Source: Spongiibacter tropicus DSM 19543
GTDB taxonomy: Bacteria; Pseudomonadota; Gammaproteobacteria; Pseudomonadales; Spongiibacteraceae
DNA length: 64,000 nt
Assembly (NCBI RefSeq): GCF_000420325.1
Contig: NZ_ATUS01000001.1
Span: 438,463-502,462, forward strand
Direction: 5' to 3'
Shown one piece after another: positions 52,504-59,429 of this stretch (position 1 is the first letter of the stretch; every line of letters starts with the position of its first letter). Below the pieces are notes generated by a model that saw only the letters and a list, made by a program, of their open reading frames with translations, was not told the DNA's origin and ran no database searches. The position numbers and the translations under genes were made by a program.

Positions 52504-52580
52504 GCCCCGGTGGCACAGCTGGATAGCGCGGCCCCCTCCTAAGGGGCAGGTCACAGGTTCGAATCCTGTCCGGGGCACCA
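52504..52580 (+). tRNA. tRNA-Arg (anticodon CCT)
   Basis: The cloverleaf is visible: acceptor GCCCCGG pairing with CCGGGGC, anticodon stem GCCCC/GGGGC around loop CTCCTAA (anticodon CCT, reading AGG), T-arm ACAGG-TTCGAAT-CCTGT, and an encoded CCA end. The D-stem GCAC/GCGC has one A-C mismatch. The rare Arg codon AGG is its target. No duplicated 3' end or integrase is seen nearby. Confidence 0.95.
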
Positions 52581-53309: not shown

Positions 53310-55811
53310 TCAGGGCCACTGATAGGCCACTTCCACTCCGTAGTGGCGCGGAGGCAGCGGCGCTTTCGTTGTTGTACCGAGATTGTCTCCCAGTGCAACA
53401 CCGCCGCCAAAGTAGACGTCATCCTTGAGGTTGTTCACATACGCGCTGATTCGCCACTGCTCATCGGGCAACCAGTTCACACGAGCGTTGTAAAGCTCCT
53501 GCCCACCCAGTGTGGCGCCTTCATAAAGACTGGCCATGGCATCCAGCCCCACAAAGATCTCGGAGCGATAGGAATAGTGCAGACGCGGAATGATCAGCCC
53601 CACCGGTGTCATAAACTGGTATTGAATAGCGATTGAACGCGTGTGCTCTGGCACCACGGCAAAAGGCTCGTCGCTGCGATCGAATTGTGAGCCATCGGCA
53701 AGAAACACCGTGTAGTCACGATAATAGGCGTCGGTGTACCCCGCGTTGGCATCGATCCGCAGCGCATCCAGTACCAGCGTCGCCTCCAGCTCCGCCCCCT
53801 GAACGATCGCCGCACCGGCATTGTCGAGAAACAGGATCACATCCGTCGGTCCACCCGGCCCCGTTTCCGCCTGCTGAACCTGAATCTGGTCGTAGTCCAT
53901 GCGGTATACCGCGCCATTCAGCCGCAGGCGCGAACCCAGTGCATCGATCTTGAAACCGAGTTCCGTGTTATTGACGATCTCAGGCTCAAAGGCATTCAAG
54001 CGCCGTCCGCGCAGGCCGATCCCCCCGGATTTATAGCCTTCGCTGACGGTTGCATAGGCCATAAAGCTGTCGATAGCCAGCGCGTCCATCCAGGCGCCCC
54101 GGCCAAAATACGTCAACGTCGCCGCCGGAGACAGTTGCTCAAAAGCCAACGACGTTTCATTAATCTCCGGGTCAAGAAACGGGATCGGCTGCGCAAAGTC
54201 GATGCCATCGAAGACCACTCGCGGCACCGGCGCGTAGATACCTCCCTGTGCGTGAATCAGCCCTTCGCGCATACCAAAAGCCGCAAAATCAGGGTTGTAG
54301 AGAACAATCTCCCGCTGCTTGTCATCTTCGGTGTAGCGCAGGCCCAGCGTCAGTTGCCATGACTCGGTAAAATCGTAACTCCCCTGTATAAACACCGCCC
54401 GAGTTTCATTTTCGATATTGCTCAGATTGACCGACGCCGACAGCAGCGGAAACACCAGATTGTCAGTCAAGTCGCCAATCGGCCCCAGGTCCGGAAATAA
54501 GCCGCCGGGCAACAGGCTGCCCGCCAGAAAAGTCGGCGGAATACCCAGGACGCCGTTGGCGCCGATAATCTGCGGATAGGGAAAGCCCTTGATGCTCTCC
54601 GTGGAGTAAAAGGCACCGAAGGTCAGATCGAGCTTATTGTCGAAAAACCGGCCATTGGCCTTCAACTCCTGACTGAGTTGATAGCGCGCCTCATCACCGG
54701 GATCAATGCCGGAAGCGCGCAGTGCCTTGGTCGCATATTTTTCACCGTTGTGTACCAGACTGAAGTCGCTGGCATCCACATCTTCCTGCTTACCCAGATC
54801 ATATTGACGGCTGTAGGCCGTTATCGATTCAACATCCAGGCTCTCGCCGCGCCAGCGCCAGGTCATTGCGTGCAGTTCAGAGGTCTGCTTGTAAAAACTG
54901 GCCTCGGCATTAATGGCCACCTTACGCTGCTCGGCGAGATCTTCCTGCGCCGCGCAGCGCTGAGCGTAGTTATCACTGGCACCGGGAATGAAGAAGGTGG
55001 CAGCCGCCGCATCGGGGTTAATGACCTCGCAATTACTGCCCTGCCCCTTTTCATCCTGATGACTCCAAAACGAAAACCAGTCCAGCGTTAGGTGATCAGA
55101 AATATCCCACAGAAAGCGCCCCGCAATCGCCTGCCGATCCTCATCGGCAAACACGCTGTTGTCCGCGATATTTTCAAAATAGCCATCGAGTCGACGCACG
55201 GAGGCACTGAGGCGAAGCGCCATATTGCGTCCCTCAACAGGGATATTCACGCTGGCTTTGAGATCTTCCCGCCCGTAATTACCCACGGTAACGGTGGTCG
55301 CCCCTTCCCAGGCATCAAAGGACGGGGCCTTTGTGGTGACCAACATCGCGCCACCGGTATTGTTTTTGCCAAACAGCGTGCCCTGTGGGCCGCGCAATAC
55401 CTGAATGCTGGCCACATCCACCGCGTCGAGGAGCTGGGAATCCTGTCGAGCAATAAAAATACCGTTCAGGTATTGCCCTACGCCGGGGTCCAGCTCCGGC
55501 GTCGAGGCACGCTGGCCAATGCCACGCACAAAGATCGCCTGACTTTTCGTGGCGGTAGGCGCCACCTGCAAGTTCGGCACAATATTCTTGATATCCGCCA
55601 GGGTACTGATCCCCGAGCGCTCCAAGTCACTGCTACCCAATGCCGATACCGACACCGGCGTATCCTGCAGGCTTTCCTCCCTGCGCCGCGCCGTGACCAC
55701 CACTTCTTCAAGTTGTGCCATGACCGGCGAAGAATACAGGGGTGCAACGGATAGTGAGCACCACGCTGCCGTCGATAATAGCGACGACAAAAACACAGCT
55801 CTTTTTGTCAC
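53310..55811 (-). CDS. TonB-dependent outer-membrane receptor
   Basis: An 833-residue ligand-gated outer-membrane channel driven by TonB-ExbB-ExbD. A signal peptide (to about residue 32, SPVMAQ) is followed by a TonB box region EEVVVTARRR. The plug domain has IFVRGIGQR and QVLRGPQGTLFGKNNTGGAM, and the beta-barrel ends in YGVEVAYQWP. The opening EEVVVTARRREESLQDTPVS is that of receptors common in sterol-, hydrocarbon- and siderophore-using marine bacteria; the ligand is not identifiable. The start is GTG at 55811 with AGAGAGG 5 nt upstream. A Fur-box-like promoter lies about 280 bp upstream. Confidence 0.93.
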   Translation of the reverse strand: MTKRAVFLSSLLSTAAWCSLSVAPLYSSPVMAQLEEVVVTARRREESLQDTPVSVSALGSSDLERSGISTLADIKNIVPNLQVAPTATKSQAIFVRGIGQRASTPELDPGVGQYLNGIFIARQDSQLLDAVDVASIQVLRGPQGTLFGKNNTGGAMLVTTKAPSFDAWEGATTVTVGNYGREDLKASVNIPVEGRNMALRLSASVRRLDGYFENIADNSVFADEDRQAIAGRFLWDISDHLTLDWFSFWSHQDEKGQGSNCEVINPDAAAATFFIPGASDNYAQRCAAQEDLAEQRKVAINAEASFYKQTSELHAMTWRWRGESLDVESITAYSRQYDLGKQEDVDASDFSLVHNGEKYATKALRASGIDPGDEARYQLSQELKANGRFFDNKLDLTFGAFYSTESIKGFPYPQIIGANGVLGIPPTFLAGSLLPGGLFPDLGPIGDLTDNLVFPLLSASVNLSNIENETRAVFIQGSYDFTESWQLTLGLRYTEDDKQREIVLYNPDFAAFGMREGLIHAQGGIYAPVPRVVFDGIDFAQPIPFLDPEINETSLAFEQLSPAATLTYFGRGAWMDALAIDSFMAYATVSEGYKSGGIGLRGRRLNAFEPEIVNNTELGFKIDALGSRLRLNGAVYRMDYDQIQVQQAETGPGGPTDVILFLDNAGAAIVQGAELEATLVLDALRIDANAGYTDAYYRDYTVFLADGSQFDRSDEPFAVVPEHTRSIAIQYQFMTPVGLIIPRLHYSYRSEIFVGLDAMASLYEGATLGGQELYNARVNWLPDEQWRISAYVNNLKDDVYFGGGVALGDNLGTTTKAPLPPRHYGVEVAYQWP

Positions 55812-55973: not shown

Positions 55974-56079
55974 AAAAAAACCCCGGCAGGACAAACACTG
56001 CCGGGGCTAATACGGAGAGATAATCGCGACGGGGCCGTAACGTCAGAGAGAGGGGGTAGACATCGCCCCGCCGCGACAT
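55974..56079 (-). ncRNA. Candidate Fur-regulated small RNA with anti-Shine-Dalgarno loop
   Basis: Predicted transcript of about 106 nt on the minus strand, from near 56079 to the T-run at 55974-55980. Seen: a 12-bp stem (56065-56076 with 56024-56035, one G-U pair), an inner 5-bp stem, and a 14-base apical loop UACCCCCUCUCUCU (56045-56058). A short U-rich linker and a 9-bp terminator hairpin with seven T follow. It lies between pycB and the TonB receptor, with no credible reading frame. It has the layout of iron-responsive sRNAs such as RyhB or PrrF, but I do not recognise its sequence. Alternatively it is an attenuated leader of the receptor gene or a pycB 3' end. Confidence 0.55.
55981..56006 (-). 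terminator. Strong intrinsic terminator
   Basis: A perfect 9-bp stem, CCCCGGCAG/CTGCCGGGG, has an 8-base loop, with seven T residues directly after it on the minus strand. It ends the candidate small RNA and any message from pycBA. Confidence 0.9.
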
Positions 56080-56085
56080 GACTTA

Positions 56086-56114
56086 ACAATAATCATTCTC
56101 ATTTTTATTTGCAA
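56086..56114 (-). promoter_or_regulatory. Promoter overlapped by a Fur-box-like sequence
   Basis: On the minus strand, TTGCAA (56109-56114) and TATTGT (56086-56091) are 17 bp apart. Between and over them, 56088-56106 reads AAAAATGAGAATGATTATT, matching the 19-bp Fur consensus at 14 positions. Spacer-to-minus-10 overlap is the usual geometry for Fur repression. It lies 26 bp after the pycB stop. Confidence 0.6.
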
Positions 56115-56140: not shown

Positions 56141-57964
56141 TCAGGGCTCAATCTCGATCAACACCTCACCTGGCGTCACGCGGTCCCCTTTGGCGACGTG
56201 AATATCCATAACAGTACCGGCGATAGGTGCCTGTACCTCCGCTTCCATTTTCATGGCTTCGGTTACCAGCACCGCCTGCCCCGCCTTGACGACATCGCCC
56301 TGTGCGACCAGTACATCGACAATATTGCCCGGCATATTGGTAGTCACGTGGCCCGGCTTGCTGGCCTGCTTGCGACCACTGCCACCTTCAGCCTGGTATT
56401 CATTCAGCGCCTCGAACACCACCTCCTCAGGCATTCCGTCGAGGGTCATATAAAGATGCCGCTTGCCTTTACCCTTGATACCGACGCCGGTAATCGCGAC
56501 CTGATAGCTTTCGCCGTGAACATCGATGACAAACTCCGTAGGCACACCACCCTCGCTGACGGGACGCGGTGTCTCGGCAGCAGATTCCAGCACCTCGGGT
56601 TGCAGCGTGCCATCAGCGCGCTGCTGCAGGAAGCCCCACCCCAGATCCGGAAACATGGCATAGGTCAGCACGTCTTCTTCACTGTCGGCCAGCCCAGCAA
56701 TTTCACCGCGCAGCTTATCCATTTCATTGGGCAACAGGTCTGCGGGACGCACATCAATCACGTCCTCGGTTCCAATCGCCTTGGCGCGCAGCTCTTCATT
56801 AACCTGCCCCAATGCCGCCCCGTAGTGCCCCTGCAAATAGCGCTTCACCTCATTGGTGATGGTGGTGTAGGGCTTGTCGGCCAGAATATTCATCACCGCC
56901 TGAGTACCGACAATCTGGGAGGTCGGGGTGACCAGAGGCGGATAGCCCAGGTCTTTGCGCACACGGGGAATCTCGGCAAACACATCGTCGATACGATTCA
57001 GCGCGCCCTGCTCTTTCAACTGGTTCGCCAGATTCGACATCATGCCGCCGGGCACCTGATTAATCTGCACGCCGACATCTTCACGGGTGAATTCACTTTC
57101 AAACTGGTGGTATTTCTTGCGCACCACCCACAGTTTTTTGGCAATGCCCTGCAAGGCGGTCAGGTCCAGCCCCGTGTCATAAGGCGTACCTTTCAGCGCG
57201 GCCACCATGGTTTCCGTGGCGGGATGGCTGGTGCCATTGGCAAACGCGGAAATCGCCGTGTCGATCACATCCACACCGGCTTCCACGGCTTTGAGCTGGC
57301 AGAGACCGGCGAGACCGGACGTCATATGCGAGTGCAGCGCCAATGGCAGGTCGAACTCGGCTTTCAGCGCCTGCACCAGCTCCTCAGTAGCCGTGGGTGT
57401 CAGCAAGCCGGCCATATCCTTAATCGCGATGGAATCGATGCCCATGTTCACCATATCCCGCGCCTGCTGGACAAAGGTCTCAGTGCTGTGCACCGGGCTG
57501 GTGGTGTAGCAAATGGTGCCCTGGGCGTGCTTACCGGCCTTTTTCACTGCCGCGATGGCAGTTTCCAGATTCCGCACATCGTTCATGGCATCGAATATCC
57601 GAAAGATATCCATACCGTTGTCGGCAGACTTCTGTACAAAGGCCGACACCACATCGTCGGCATAGTGGCGGTAACCCAGCAGGTTCTGACCGCGCAGCAG
57701 CATTTGCAGCGGCGTGTTGGGCAAGGCCTCACGCAATTTACGCAGCCGCTCCCAGGGATCTTCCTTCAAAAAGCGCACGCAGGCGTCGAAGGTGGCGCCA
57801 CCCCAGACTTCCAGCGACCAGTAGCCGACGGCATCCAGCTCGGCGCAGACCGGCAGCATGTCTTCGGTGCGAAGGCGCGTCGCGATCAGTGACTGATGGC
57901 CATCGCGCAATGCCACATCGGTGATTTTCACAGGCTTGGCAGAAGATGGTGAAGAAGAAGTCAT
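56141..57964 (-). CDS. pycB: Pyruvate carboxylase subunit B (carboxyltransferase plus biotin carrier)
   Basis: Transfers CO2 from biotin to pyruvate, giving oxaloacetate. The 607-residue protein has the DRE-TIM carboxyltransferase barrel (ITDVALRDGHQSL, DIFRIFDAMND, HSHMTSGLA), a PYC_OADA linker domain and a C-terminal biotinyl domain with AMKM (biotinylated K572). It is often annotated as oxaloacetate decarboxylase alpha (OadA). The adjacent biotin carboxylase and the absence of sodium-pump beta and gamma subunits favour two-subunit pyruvate carboxylase. ATG at 57964 has AGGA 7 nt upstream. Confidence 0.93.
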   Translation of the reverse strand: MTSSSPSSAKPVKITDVALRDGHQSLIATRLRTEDMLPVCAELDAVGYWSLEVWGGATFDACVRFLKEDPWERLRKLREALPNTPLQMLLRGQNLLGYRHYADDVVSAFVQKSADNGMDIFRIFDAMNDVRNLETAIAAVKKAGKHAQGTICYTTSPVHSTETFVQQARDMVNMGIDSIAIKDMAGLLTPTATEELVQALKAEFDLPLALHSHMTSGLAGLCQLKAVEAGVDVIDTAISAFANGTSHPATETMVAALKGTPYDTGLDLTALQGIAKKLWVVRKKYHQFESEFTREDVGVQINQVPGGMMSNLANQLKEQGALNRIDDVFAEIPRVRKDLGYPPLVTPTSQIVGTQAVMNILADKPYTTITNEVKRYLQGHYGAALGQVNEELRAKAIGTEDVIDVRPADLLPNEMDKLRGEIAGLADSEEDVLTYAMFPDLGWGFLQQRADGTLQPEVLESAAETPRPVSEGGVPTEFVIDVHGESYQVAITGVGIKGKGKRHLYMTLDGMPEEVVFEALNEYQAEGGSGRKQASKPGHVTTNMPGNIVDVLVAQGDVVKAGQAVLVTEAMKMEAEVQAPIAGTVMDIHVAKGDRVTPGEVLIEIEP

Positions 57965-58013
57965 GGTGCGTTCCTTTACTGTTTGCACGGGTATTCGCTG
58001 ACGGCAGAAAAAT

Positions 58014-59429
58014 TTAGAGTCCGGCATGGGCGGCTATGGCTGCCGCCACCGCCAGTGCCAGTTCTTCGGGCCGGGTTTTATCGGAGTAATGGGTCAGCTC
58101 CGGGTGGTTCTCGACAAAGCTGGTATCGAAATGCCCTGCCCGAAAATCCGGATGTTTCAGAATTTGCTGGTAGTACGGCGCGGTCGTTCGCACCCCCTGA
58201 ACCCGCATATCGTTCAGGGCCCGGGCGCCGCGATTCAGGGTCTCTTCCCAGGTCAGCCCCCACACCACCAGTTTCAGACACATGGAGTCAAAATACGGCG
58301 GAATACTGTAGCCGGTGTAAATCGCCGTGTCGGTGCGCACACCGGGGCCACCGGGTGCGTAATACCGGCTGATTTTGCCGAAGCTGGGGAGAAAATCGTT
58401 TTTCGGATCCTCGGCATTTACCCGAAATTGCAGGGCGTAGCCGCGATAGCTGATGTCTTCCTGCCGATAACCCAGCGTGAGCCCGGAGGCAATGCGGATT
58501 TGCTCGCGCACAATATCCACACCGGTAATCTGCTCGGTAATCGTGTGTTCAACCTGCACACGGGTATTCATTTCCATGAAGTAAATCTGGTTGTCAGCCA
58601 GCAAAAACTCCACGGTCCCGGCATTTTCATAGCCCACGGCCTCGGCGGCGCGCACGGCCAGCTCACCAATATAACTGCGCTGTTCCGGAGTGAGCTGCGG
58701 TGACGGCGCGATCTCAATCAACTTTTGATTGCGGCGCTGAATCGAGCAGTCGCGCTCATAGAGGTGAATCACATTGCCGTGACTGTCGGCGAGAATCTGC
58801 GCCTCGATGTGACGCGGATTAACGATGCACTTTTCCAGAAAAACATCGGCGCGACCGAAGGCTTTGGTCGCCTCCGAGACCACACGGCCAAACTGCCGAC
58901 GCAAGTCGTCTTCGCTGTCGCAGCGGCGAATACCTCGCCCACCACCGCCGGAGGTTGCCTTCAGCATGACGGGATAGCCGATCTGCGCCGCGACGTCGAC
59001 AGCTTCGTCAACACCGGCCAGATTGTCTTCCGTCCCCGGTGTGACCGGCACGCCCGCCTCTTTCATCGCCCGGCGCGCTTCGGTTTTGTCCCCCATGCGA
59101 CGAATCACTTCAGCGCTGGGCCCGATAAAGGTAATCCCTCGCTCGGCGCAGATTTCCGCCAACTCCGGATTCTCCGACAAAAAACCGTAACCGGGATGGA
59201 GGCCGTCACAGCCGGTCTCCACCGCCAGTGCCACCAGTTTTCGGGGATTGAGATAGCCTTCCAGTGGATCGCTGCCCACATTGTAGGCCTCGTCAGCACG
59301 CTTGACGTGCAGAGAGAAACGATCGGGCTCGGTGTAAATCGCCGCCGAGCGAATACCCATTTCGGCGCAGGCCCGAACGATACGCACCGCAATCTCACCG
59401 CGATTGGCAATGAGGATTTTTTTCAACAT
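58014..59429 (-). CDS. pycA: Pyruvate carboxylase subunit A (biotin carboxylase)
   Basis: ATP-grasp enzyme that carboxylates the biotin on PycB. The 471-residue protein starts MLKKILIANRGEIAVRIVRA and has the glycine-rich ATP loop MLKATSGGGGRGIRRC. Metal-binding residues lie around FMEMNTRVQVEH, followed by the C-terminal domain. ATG at 59429 has GGGAGT 6 nt upstream; an 18-codon longer frame has no such site. It is followed by pycB after 49 bp and divergent from the LysR gene. Confidence 0.94.
   Translation of the reverse strand: MLKKILIANRGEIAVRIVRACAEMGIRSAAIYTEPDRFSLHVKRADEAYNVGSDPLEGYLNPRKLVALAVETGCDGLHPGYGFLSENPELAEICAERGITFIGPSAEVIRRMGDKTEARRAMKEAGVPVTPGTEDNLAGVDEAVDVAAQIGYPVMLKATSGGGGRGIRRCDSEDDLRRQFGRVVSEATKAFGRADVFLEKCIVNPRHIEAQILADSHGNVIHLYERDCSIQRRNQKLIEIAPSPQLTPEQRSYIGELAVRAAEAVGYENAGTVEFLLADNQIYFMEMNTRVQVEHTITEQITGVDIVREQIRIASGLTLGYRQEDISYRGYALQFRVNAEDPKNDFLPSFGKISRYYAPGGPGVRTDTAIYTGYSIPPYFDSMCLKLVVWGLTWEETLNRGARALNDMRVQGVRTTAPYYQQILKHPDFRAGHFDTSFVENHPELTHYSDKTRPEELALAVAAAIAAHAGL

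What the first reader, a model, noticed from the sequence alone, without database searches (positions are those of the whole stretch)
55974..56114. Candidate Fur-repressed small RNA between pycB and a TonB receptor
Minus strand: TTGCAA-17 bp-TATTGT, overlapped by a 19-bp stretch matching the Fur consensus at 14 positions, then about 106 nt to a perfect 9-bp terminator with seven T. Between them a 12-bp stem closes on an inner 5-bp stem and a 14-base loop UACCCCCUCUCUCU. Promoter, operator, structured body and terminator are all at the right distances for an iron-starvation sRNA. The exposed C/U loop is complementary to purine-rich ribosome sites. I do not recognise the sequence as RyhB or PrrF.
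Basis: partly seen in the sequence, partly recalled or inferred. Interest (0 to 1): 0.8.

Follow-up and report, generated by a model that had tools for sequence, protein, structure and literature searches.

The report
Fur-controlled iron-sparing small RNA family
The spot holds what looks like a real, uncatalogued small RNA gene of a marine bacterial genus that should switch on when iron runs out and block production of the iron enzyme superoxide dismutase, and its pairing site seems to have changed in step with that target.

Summary
On the minus strand at 55974-56114 lie a promoter, an overlapping Fur box, a long hairpin with a C/U loop, a 14-nt single-stranded linker and a terminator. The same unit is intact in 13 of 18 genomes of the genus (Zhongshania/Spongiibacter/Neomelitea group), in 11 directly downstream of pycB. 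The gene downstream differs between species, so it is not the TonB receptor's leader. Helices are kept by compensatory changes (21 of 27 pairs; 94% of cells paired). Rfam has no family for it; the nearest, PrrF, scores 26.7 bits against a cut-off of 90. The likely main target is sodB (iron superoxide dismutase). In all 12 genomes with both genes, loop or linker pairs with the sodB ribosome site (-15.8 to -21.0 kcal/mol). sodB is the only gene found with the linker complement at its start in 8 of 8 genomes scanned. The pairing site differs by clade: linker in eight genomes, loop in four, including this one, with sodB leaders that differ to match. No expression data exist here. It works like PrrF/RyhB, and is a new family or a far-diverged PrrF relative: a new member of a known kind.

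The parts
56109..56114 (-). -35 element TTGCAA
   Evidence: TTG with 17-bp spacer to the -10 in 12 of 13 homologues by scan, the 13th by eye
56086..56091 (-). -10 element TATTGT (TAT[CT][AG]T in 12 of 13 homologues)
56082..56106 (-). Fur box, two overlapping 19-bp registers, each 14 of 19 on its better strand; covers most of the spacer and the -10
   Evidence: 14-16 of 19 in 13 of 13 homologues
55974..56079 (-). predicted sRNA, about 106 nt (start inferred from the -10)
   Evidence: inference; covariance models R1/R2
56023..56077 (-). hairpin 1: 13-bp outer and 6-bp inner helix
   Evidence: fold; covariation
56045..56058 (-). 14-nt C/U-rich loop UACCCCCUCUCUCU; a CCCCC run is present in 13 of 13 homologues
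56039..56052 (-). predicted sodB-pairing site in this species, CUCUC(U)CUGACGUU, 13 bp with one bulge, from loop into inner helix
56009..56022 (-). single-stranded linker with UCUCUCC (56013-56019; in 13 of 13 homologues); predicted sodB-pairing site in eight relatives
55974..56008 (-). intrinsic terminator with T7
56141..58027 (-). pycB, upstream neighbour on the same strand (26 bp between its stop and the -35); a landmark, not part of the unit
   Evidence: directly upstream in 11 of the 13 genomes with an intact sRNA and about 1.9 kb upstream in the other two
53310..55811 (-). TonB-dependent receptor, downstream gene; by eye such a receptor follows in 3 of 13 genomes, so probably not part of the unit

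Best explanation
It is the gene of a Fur-repressed, iron-sparing trans-acting small RNA. With iron, Fur covers the promoter. Without iron, an RNA of about 106 nt is made. Its loop CCCCCUCUCUCUGACGUU in this species, or its linker (GA)UUCUCUCC / UGUCUCUCC in relatives, pairs with the ribosome site of sodB mRNA, blocks translation of iron superoxide dismutase and probably leads to mRNA decay with Hfq, so that iron is spared. Shown by comparison: the gene unit, its conservation, the RNA structure, the Fur box and the matched complementarity to sodB. Inferred: transcription, the Fur effect, Hfq dependence, translational block and any further targets.
For: R2 model hits of 58.6-99.5 bits in 13 of 18 genus genomes; R1, built from 4 sequences, found 7 further loci at E 4e-13 to 1.4e-4. 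Pair counts on 13 rows: 94.4% of cells paired, 21 of 27 pairs with change on both sides, 0 of 500 shuffles, slid controls 41-50%. Fur box in 13 of 13. Downstream gene not conserved. sodB duplexes in 12 of 12 genomes: loop -20.4 to -21.0 in four, linker -15.8 to -18.8 in eight. Rank against other gene starts of the same genome: G000 loop 6 of 337 as low; G007 linker 1 of 328; G011 linker 14 of 337. Whole-genome pattern scans in 8 genomes: sodB is the only gene recurring in all 8. The sRNA-less G009 has lost the complement (GGAGGATAGC). A Fur-family protein (147 bits) is encoded in this genome, and Hfq in 17 of 18 of the genus.
Against: No transcript evidence. Three genomes without an intact sRNA (G002, G010, G015) and G006 (a remnant) keep GGAGAGAATC in sodB, so the complement alone does not prove regulation. 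G011 ranks worse when the better of loop and linker is taken for every gene (26 of 337 as low), and G004 is weak (57 of 500 shuffled segments as low). Some sRNAs pair better with another species' sodB than with their own. sdhC, a classical target, is not predicted in G000 or G011 and only weakly in G007 (17 of 328 as low for the loop). GGAGAGA is itself a good ribosome site: what I take by eye for rpsC carries it in 3 of 4 genomes of the first scan. Pair counts use alignments fitted to the structure; the unfitted 4-row alignment shows 4 double-change pairs, a level that 13 of 500 shuffles reach.
Confidence: 0.85

Rival explanations
1. It is the 5' leader or attenuator of the TonB receptor gene: Fur controls the receptor and the terminator is a conditional one.
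For: Same strand, upstream of the receptor; by eye a TonB receptor follows in G000, G012 and G013.
Against: In a crude reading-frame list, other or oppositely oriented genes follow in the other 10 of 13 genomes; the minimum-energy and centroid folds agree and keep hairpin 1 and terminator apart; G000, G012 and G013 are close kin.
Confidence: 0.05
2. It is the terminator / 3' UTR of pycAB, and any small RNA is processed from that mRNA.
For: It lies directly after pycB in 11 of 18 genomes and its terminator could serve pycB.
Against: A conserved promoter and Fur box lie before the RNA in 13 of 13; in G005 and G007 about 1.9 kb of other sequence separates it from pycB.
Confidence: 0.06
3. It is a true PrrF orthologue, diverged beyond the Rfam cut-off, not an independent family. 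(This rival concerns descent and is compatible with the mechanism above.)
For: PrrF is the best Rfam match and spans Fur box, hairpin and terminator (26.7 bits); G011 reaches 35.4 bits, E 3.7e-4; the order holds a series of PrrF-like RNAs of 36-148 bits with the same layout, some with cores such as UCUCUCUCAUCA; R2 gives 12-17 bits inside PrrF matches of five of the eight such loci tried (L146, L148, L155, L156, L158; not L151, L153, L154).
Against: Below the cut-off of 90; the PrrF core CUCAUCARGCUAAUCACGG is absent; part of the score is Fur box and terminator; no PycB within the flanks (about 1.5 kb) of the 16 other PrrF-search loci tested.
Confidence: 0.4
4. The sRNA is real, but sodB complementarity is only a by-product of a ribosome site meeting an anti-SD sequence.
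For: GGAGAGA occurs at other starts; some genomes without an intact sRNA keep it.
Against: Complementarity extends beyond the ribosome site (AACGUCAGGAGAG; GGAGAGAAUC) and is mostly clade-matched; sodB alone recurs in 8 of 8.
Confidence: 0.12

Closest known systems
PrrF1/PrrF2 (Pseudomonas; Rfam RF00444)
   Same: Fur box over the promoter, hairpin, pyrimidine-rich single-stranded core, terminator; sodB among the targets (PMC13104616, abstract and passages).
   Different: Core sequence absent, score 26.7 of 90 bits, one strong copy per genome here, CCCCC loop as a second pairing site, next to pycB.
RyhB (enterobacteria)
   Same: Fur-repressed, acts on sodB (passages of PMC7377471).
   Different: No RyhB match among the 21 Rfam matches at E <= 10.
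BrrF (Burkholderia)
   Same: Iron-sparing sRNA with sodB as target, without sequence similarity to other Fur-regulated sRNAs (PMC7377471, passages).
IsrR (Staphylococcus) and FsrA (Bacillus)
   Same: Fur-repressed IsrR has three C-rich single-stranded regions that contribute differently by target; FsrA binds Shine-Dalgarno sequences by a C-rich motif (PMC9410917, passages).
   Different: Other phylum; neither is among the Rfam matches at E <= 10; whether Rfam holds models of them was not checked.

Membership tests
PrrF (RF00444) | covariance-model score over the gathering cut-off of 90 bits | tested here: not met
   26.7 bits in the window; best in the genus 35.4
PrrF (RF00444) | core CUCCUCAUCARGCUAAUCACGG between hairpin and terminator | tested here: not met
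   only the UCUC part is shared
PrrF (RF00444) | Fur box over the promoter | tested here: met
PrrF (RF00444) | common descent (synteny or intermediates) | tested here: inconclusive
   weak mutual model hits; no PycB beside the 16 other PrrF-search loci
RyhB | match to the Rfam model | tested here: not met
   not among the 21 matches at E <= 10
Fur-repressed iron-sparing sRNAs (functional class) | Fur operator at own promoter | tested here: met
   13 of 13 homologues; sequence only, no binding assay
Fur-repressed iron-sparing sRNAs (functional class) | pairing with the start region of mRNAs of iron proteins | tested here: met
   sodB, 12 of 12 genomes, by prediction only; sdhC not met in G000 and G011
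Fur-repressed iron-sparing sRNAs (functional class) | induction by iron starvation and repression of targets | not testable with these tools
   no expression data

The most novel reading that the evidence does not exclude
One Fur sRNA family carries two interchangeable anti-ribosome-site elements (loop and linker), and within one genus the site that pairs with the same target, sodB, has moved from the linker to the loop while the sodB leader changed in step: a pairing-site hand-over caught in living species.
Probability: 0.55. Interest if true: 0.6.

Novelty: new member of a known kind. Interest (0 to 1): 0.5.

Why it matters
It would extend iron-sparing RNA control to a marine group of the Pseudomonadales in which my searches of open-access papers showed no such RNA (of which I saw 10 of 80 listed, 69 and 70), and it gives a covariance-model seed for a family missing from Rfam. 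Its linker-to-loop difference, with matching differences in sodB, makes the question of how an sRNA keeps a target while its sequence turns over directly testable by swapping loops, linkers and leaders between species. The graded series of PrrF-like RNAs across the order may show how PrrF and this RNA are related.

Tried and rejected
Leader of the TonB receptor: rejected, since by eye such a gene follows in only 3 of 13 genomes. Rfam membership: no match at gathering other than a tRNA elsewhere; at E <= 10 PrrF leads, and trpB, Spot 42, Esr41 and others look like chance or terminator matches. Exact subtype-a linker pattern over 390 genomes of the order: 7 hits, all in the own genus; the pattern misses subtype b, whose linker is one base shorter. 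R2 gave matches at E <= 1 in 32 genomes outside the genus, the best being G021 at 34.3 bits, E 1.3e-6, about as high as the G006 remnant. I looked at 7 of the 32 (G021, G027, G080, G067, G065, G030, G079): none shows what I would call a Fur box before the match, though G030 has an AT-rich stretch, and I treat them as unrelated; the other 25 I did not look at. Those of G021 and G065 resemble each other and may be another sRNA. The search used Infernal's stricter filters, so weak copies in G002, G015 or elsewhere could be missed. sdhC as a target: rejected for G000 and G011, weak for G007 (start codon assumed). First multiple alignments with wrongly oriented loci and with divergent stems were misaligned and not used for pair counts. 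Single-genome linker-complement starts that code for two 2Fe-2S ferredoxins (G000), a ferritin-like protein resembling Dps (G001), rubredoxin (G017), a Rieske oxygenase (G008), a P450 and a molybdopterin Fe4S4 enzyme (G005) and a class-V aminotransferase that I take for IscS (G007) are leads that I picked by eye from the lists; no enrichment test was made.

Full report
What is there. On the minus strand between pycB (56141-58027) and a TonB receptor gene (53310-55811) the sequence reads TTGCAA, 17 bp, TATTGT, with a Fur box over most of the spacer and the -10, then about 106 nt to the end of a terminator. The RNA folds into a 19-bp hairpin (13 outer, 6 inner, a 3-nt bulge) with a 14-nt loop UACCCCCUCUCUCU, a 14-nt single-stranded linker containing UCUCUCC, and the terminator; z = -6.65 against dinucleotide shuffles, 0 of 200 as stable. 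The Fur-box stretch is the only place in the 64-kb window with 14 of 19 matches (consensus recalled).

It is a conserved gene. A DNA search of 96 relatives gave matches over most of the unit in five other genomes of the genus (E 9.5e-25 to 0.002). All 18 genomes of the genus have pycB. Reading the DNA behind pycB, 11 of 18 have the unit there; G006 has a remnant without Fur box and 5' strand; 6 lack it at that spot. Model R1, made from 4 sequences, found all 11, of which 7 were not used to build it, with E 4e-13 to 1.4e-4 in 63 kb. It also found a copy in Zhongshania sp. BJYM1 (L070), 1.9 kb behind pycB. Model R2, made from 11, gave 58.6-99.5 bits in 13 of 18 genomes, adding G005 and G007. It gave 35 bits for the G006 remnant and 28.6 bits for a truncated match in G010; G002 and G015 had none at E <= 1 and G009 only 15.3 bits, under the tool's stricter filters. 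Of 78 genomes outside the genus, 32 had a match at E <= 1, the best at 34.3 bits (G021); I looked at seven and found none with a Fur box, so I know of no member outside the genus, but 25 were not looked at. The exact subtype-a linker pattern hit 7 of 390 genomes of the order, all in the genus. Named relatives by PycB are Neomelitea salexigens, Spongiibacter thalassae, S. pelagi, Zhongshania aquimaris, Z. marina and Z. antarctica.

Structure. On the 13-row alignment fitted to the model, 94.4% of 319 cells form standard pairs, 21 of 27 pairs have a change on both sides (79 cells), and 0 of 500 shuffles reach any of the five measures; slid partners give 41-50%. The 11-row version agrees. The unfitted 4-row alignment shows 4 double-change pairs, a level 13 of 500 shuffles reach. 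Stems differ strongly between species yet pair, for example G011 and G014. The conserved sequence is elsewhere: a CCCCC run in the loop and UCUCUCC in the linker, each in 13 of 13.

Control region. The best 19-mer before the RNA matches the Fur consensus at 14-16 of 19 in 13 of 13 homologues, and TTG-17-TAT[CT][AG]T is found in 12 of 13, the last reading TTGCAC-17-TACTAT by eye. A Fur-family protein of 147 bits is encoded in this genome, with two weaker ones of 48 bits, and Hfq in 17 of 18 genomes; the 18th, G003, is 84% complete.

Target. I tested sodB and sdhC first because PrrF, RyhB and BrrF act on such genes (PMC13104616, abstract and passages; PMC7377471, passages). The sodB ribosome site of G000, G012, G013 and G001 reads ACGUCAGGAGAGAC, while the leader around it differs between G000, G001 and the G012/G013 pair. 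It pairs with the loop CUCUC(U)CUGACGUU, at -20.4 to -21.0 kcal/mol. In G011, G014 and G004 the site is GGAGAGAC, and in G005, G007, G008, G016 and G017 GGAGAGAAUC; these pair with the linkers UGUCUCUCC and GAUUCUCUCC, at -15.8 to -18.8. That is 12 of 12 genomes having both; G003 had no sodB match. Against about 330 roughly called gene starts from 400 kb of the same genome, sodB is beaten or equalled by 6 of 337 (G000, loop), 1 of 328 (G007, linker) and 14 of 337 (G011, linker; 26 of 337 when the better of loop and linker is taken for every gene). Letter-shuffled segments reach the observed energy in 0-10 of 500 for 11 genomes and in 57 of 500 for G004. In the cross table the sRNAs of G000, G012, G013, G001, G008 and G005 pair best with sodB of their own clade. 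The others do not in full: G011 and G004 pair better with G001's sodB (-22.5 and -23.0) than with their own, G004 also with those of several other genomes, G014 slightly better with G011's (-18.9 against -18.5), and G007, G016 and G017 better with G010's (-21.0), the last two also with G002's (-19.6), than with their own (-18.7).

Scan without choosing genes. The linker complement at a start codon (GGAGAGAY or GGAGAGAA before ATG) has 23, 14, 20 and 19 matches in G000, G013, G001 and G011 (reversed-pattern control 4, 12, 9, 12) and 16, 15, 16 and 17 in G007, G008, G017 and G005 (control 4, 6, 6, 9). I read reading frames of at least 40 residues behind all matches except the sodB places of G000 and G001, already known, and one place overlapping another. 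sodB is among the matches in 8 of 8: six from clustering, plus G000:C1:1099127 and G001:C12:37111, which are the sodB sites. The next most frequent are a group that I take by eye for rpsC, in 3 of 8, and a regulator-like group with 3 members. Single-genome matches include several iron or Fe-S proteins; these are leads only.

Evolution. On a PycB tree the four loop users form a clade (support 0.73) among linker users, so the linker is the likely older site and the loop the newer one; the deepest branch of the genus is poorly supported (0.25). G009, beside that clade, has no detectable copy of the RNA and has GGAGGAUAGC at sodB. G002, G010, G015 and G006, without an intact RNA, keep GGAGAGAAUC, which may mean recent loss or another use.

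Relation to the known. Only PrrF comes near in Rfam (26.7 bits against 90; G011 35.4 bits, E 3.7e-4). Across the order there is a graded series of PrrF-like RNAs with the same layout, most with a core like CUCAUCARGCUAAUC; some have UCUCUCUCAUCA cores. R2 gives weak hits (12-17 bits) inside PrrF matches of five of eight such loci. Common descent with PrrF is therefore possible but not shown, and by the cut-off and the missing core it is not a PrrF member. In manner it also resembles IsrR, with several C-rich single-stranded regions used by different targets (PMC9410917, passages). I found no paper with Zhongshania, Fur and sRNA together, and one paper with Spongiibacter and small RNA, on another subject by its title and abstract start; a broader search listed 10 of 80 papers, none on such an RNA in this group by title. 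Only open-access papers are held.

Verdict. A real sRNA gene by comparative evidence, ordinary in kind, new as a family, with an unusually clear case for one target and for movement of the pairing site. Transcription, Fur binding and repression of sodB remain to be shown at the bench.

Noticed in passing
L180 (G021) and L185 (G065), match at 1501 onward: Two genomes of another family (f2) share a long stem, a linker GUAUCUCCGCAUU and a terminator, without a Fur-box-like stretch before the match: possibly another uncatalogued sRNA with the same linker-terminator style.
   Followed up: partly
L151 and L153 (G068, G026); L156 and L158 (G079, G039); L155 (G057): PrrF-like RNAs below the Rfam cut-off, some with a much shortened hairpin or a UCUCUCUCAUCA-like core, spread over the order; they suggest that PrrF is wider and more varied than its Rfam model.
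   Followed up: partly
L049 / L179 (G006), behind pycB: A remnant of the sRNA: loop, linker and terminator kept, Fur box and 5' strand gone.
   Followed up: yes
L162 (G071) and L187 (G030): Two genomes of family f11 share a structured RNA-like stretch ending in GUAUCUCCCUAAUU and a terminator.
   Followed up: no
window 52504-52577 +: A tRNA gene, the only Rfam match in the window at gathering score.
   Followed up: no
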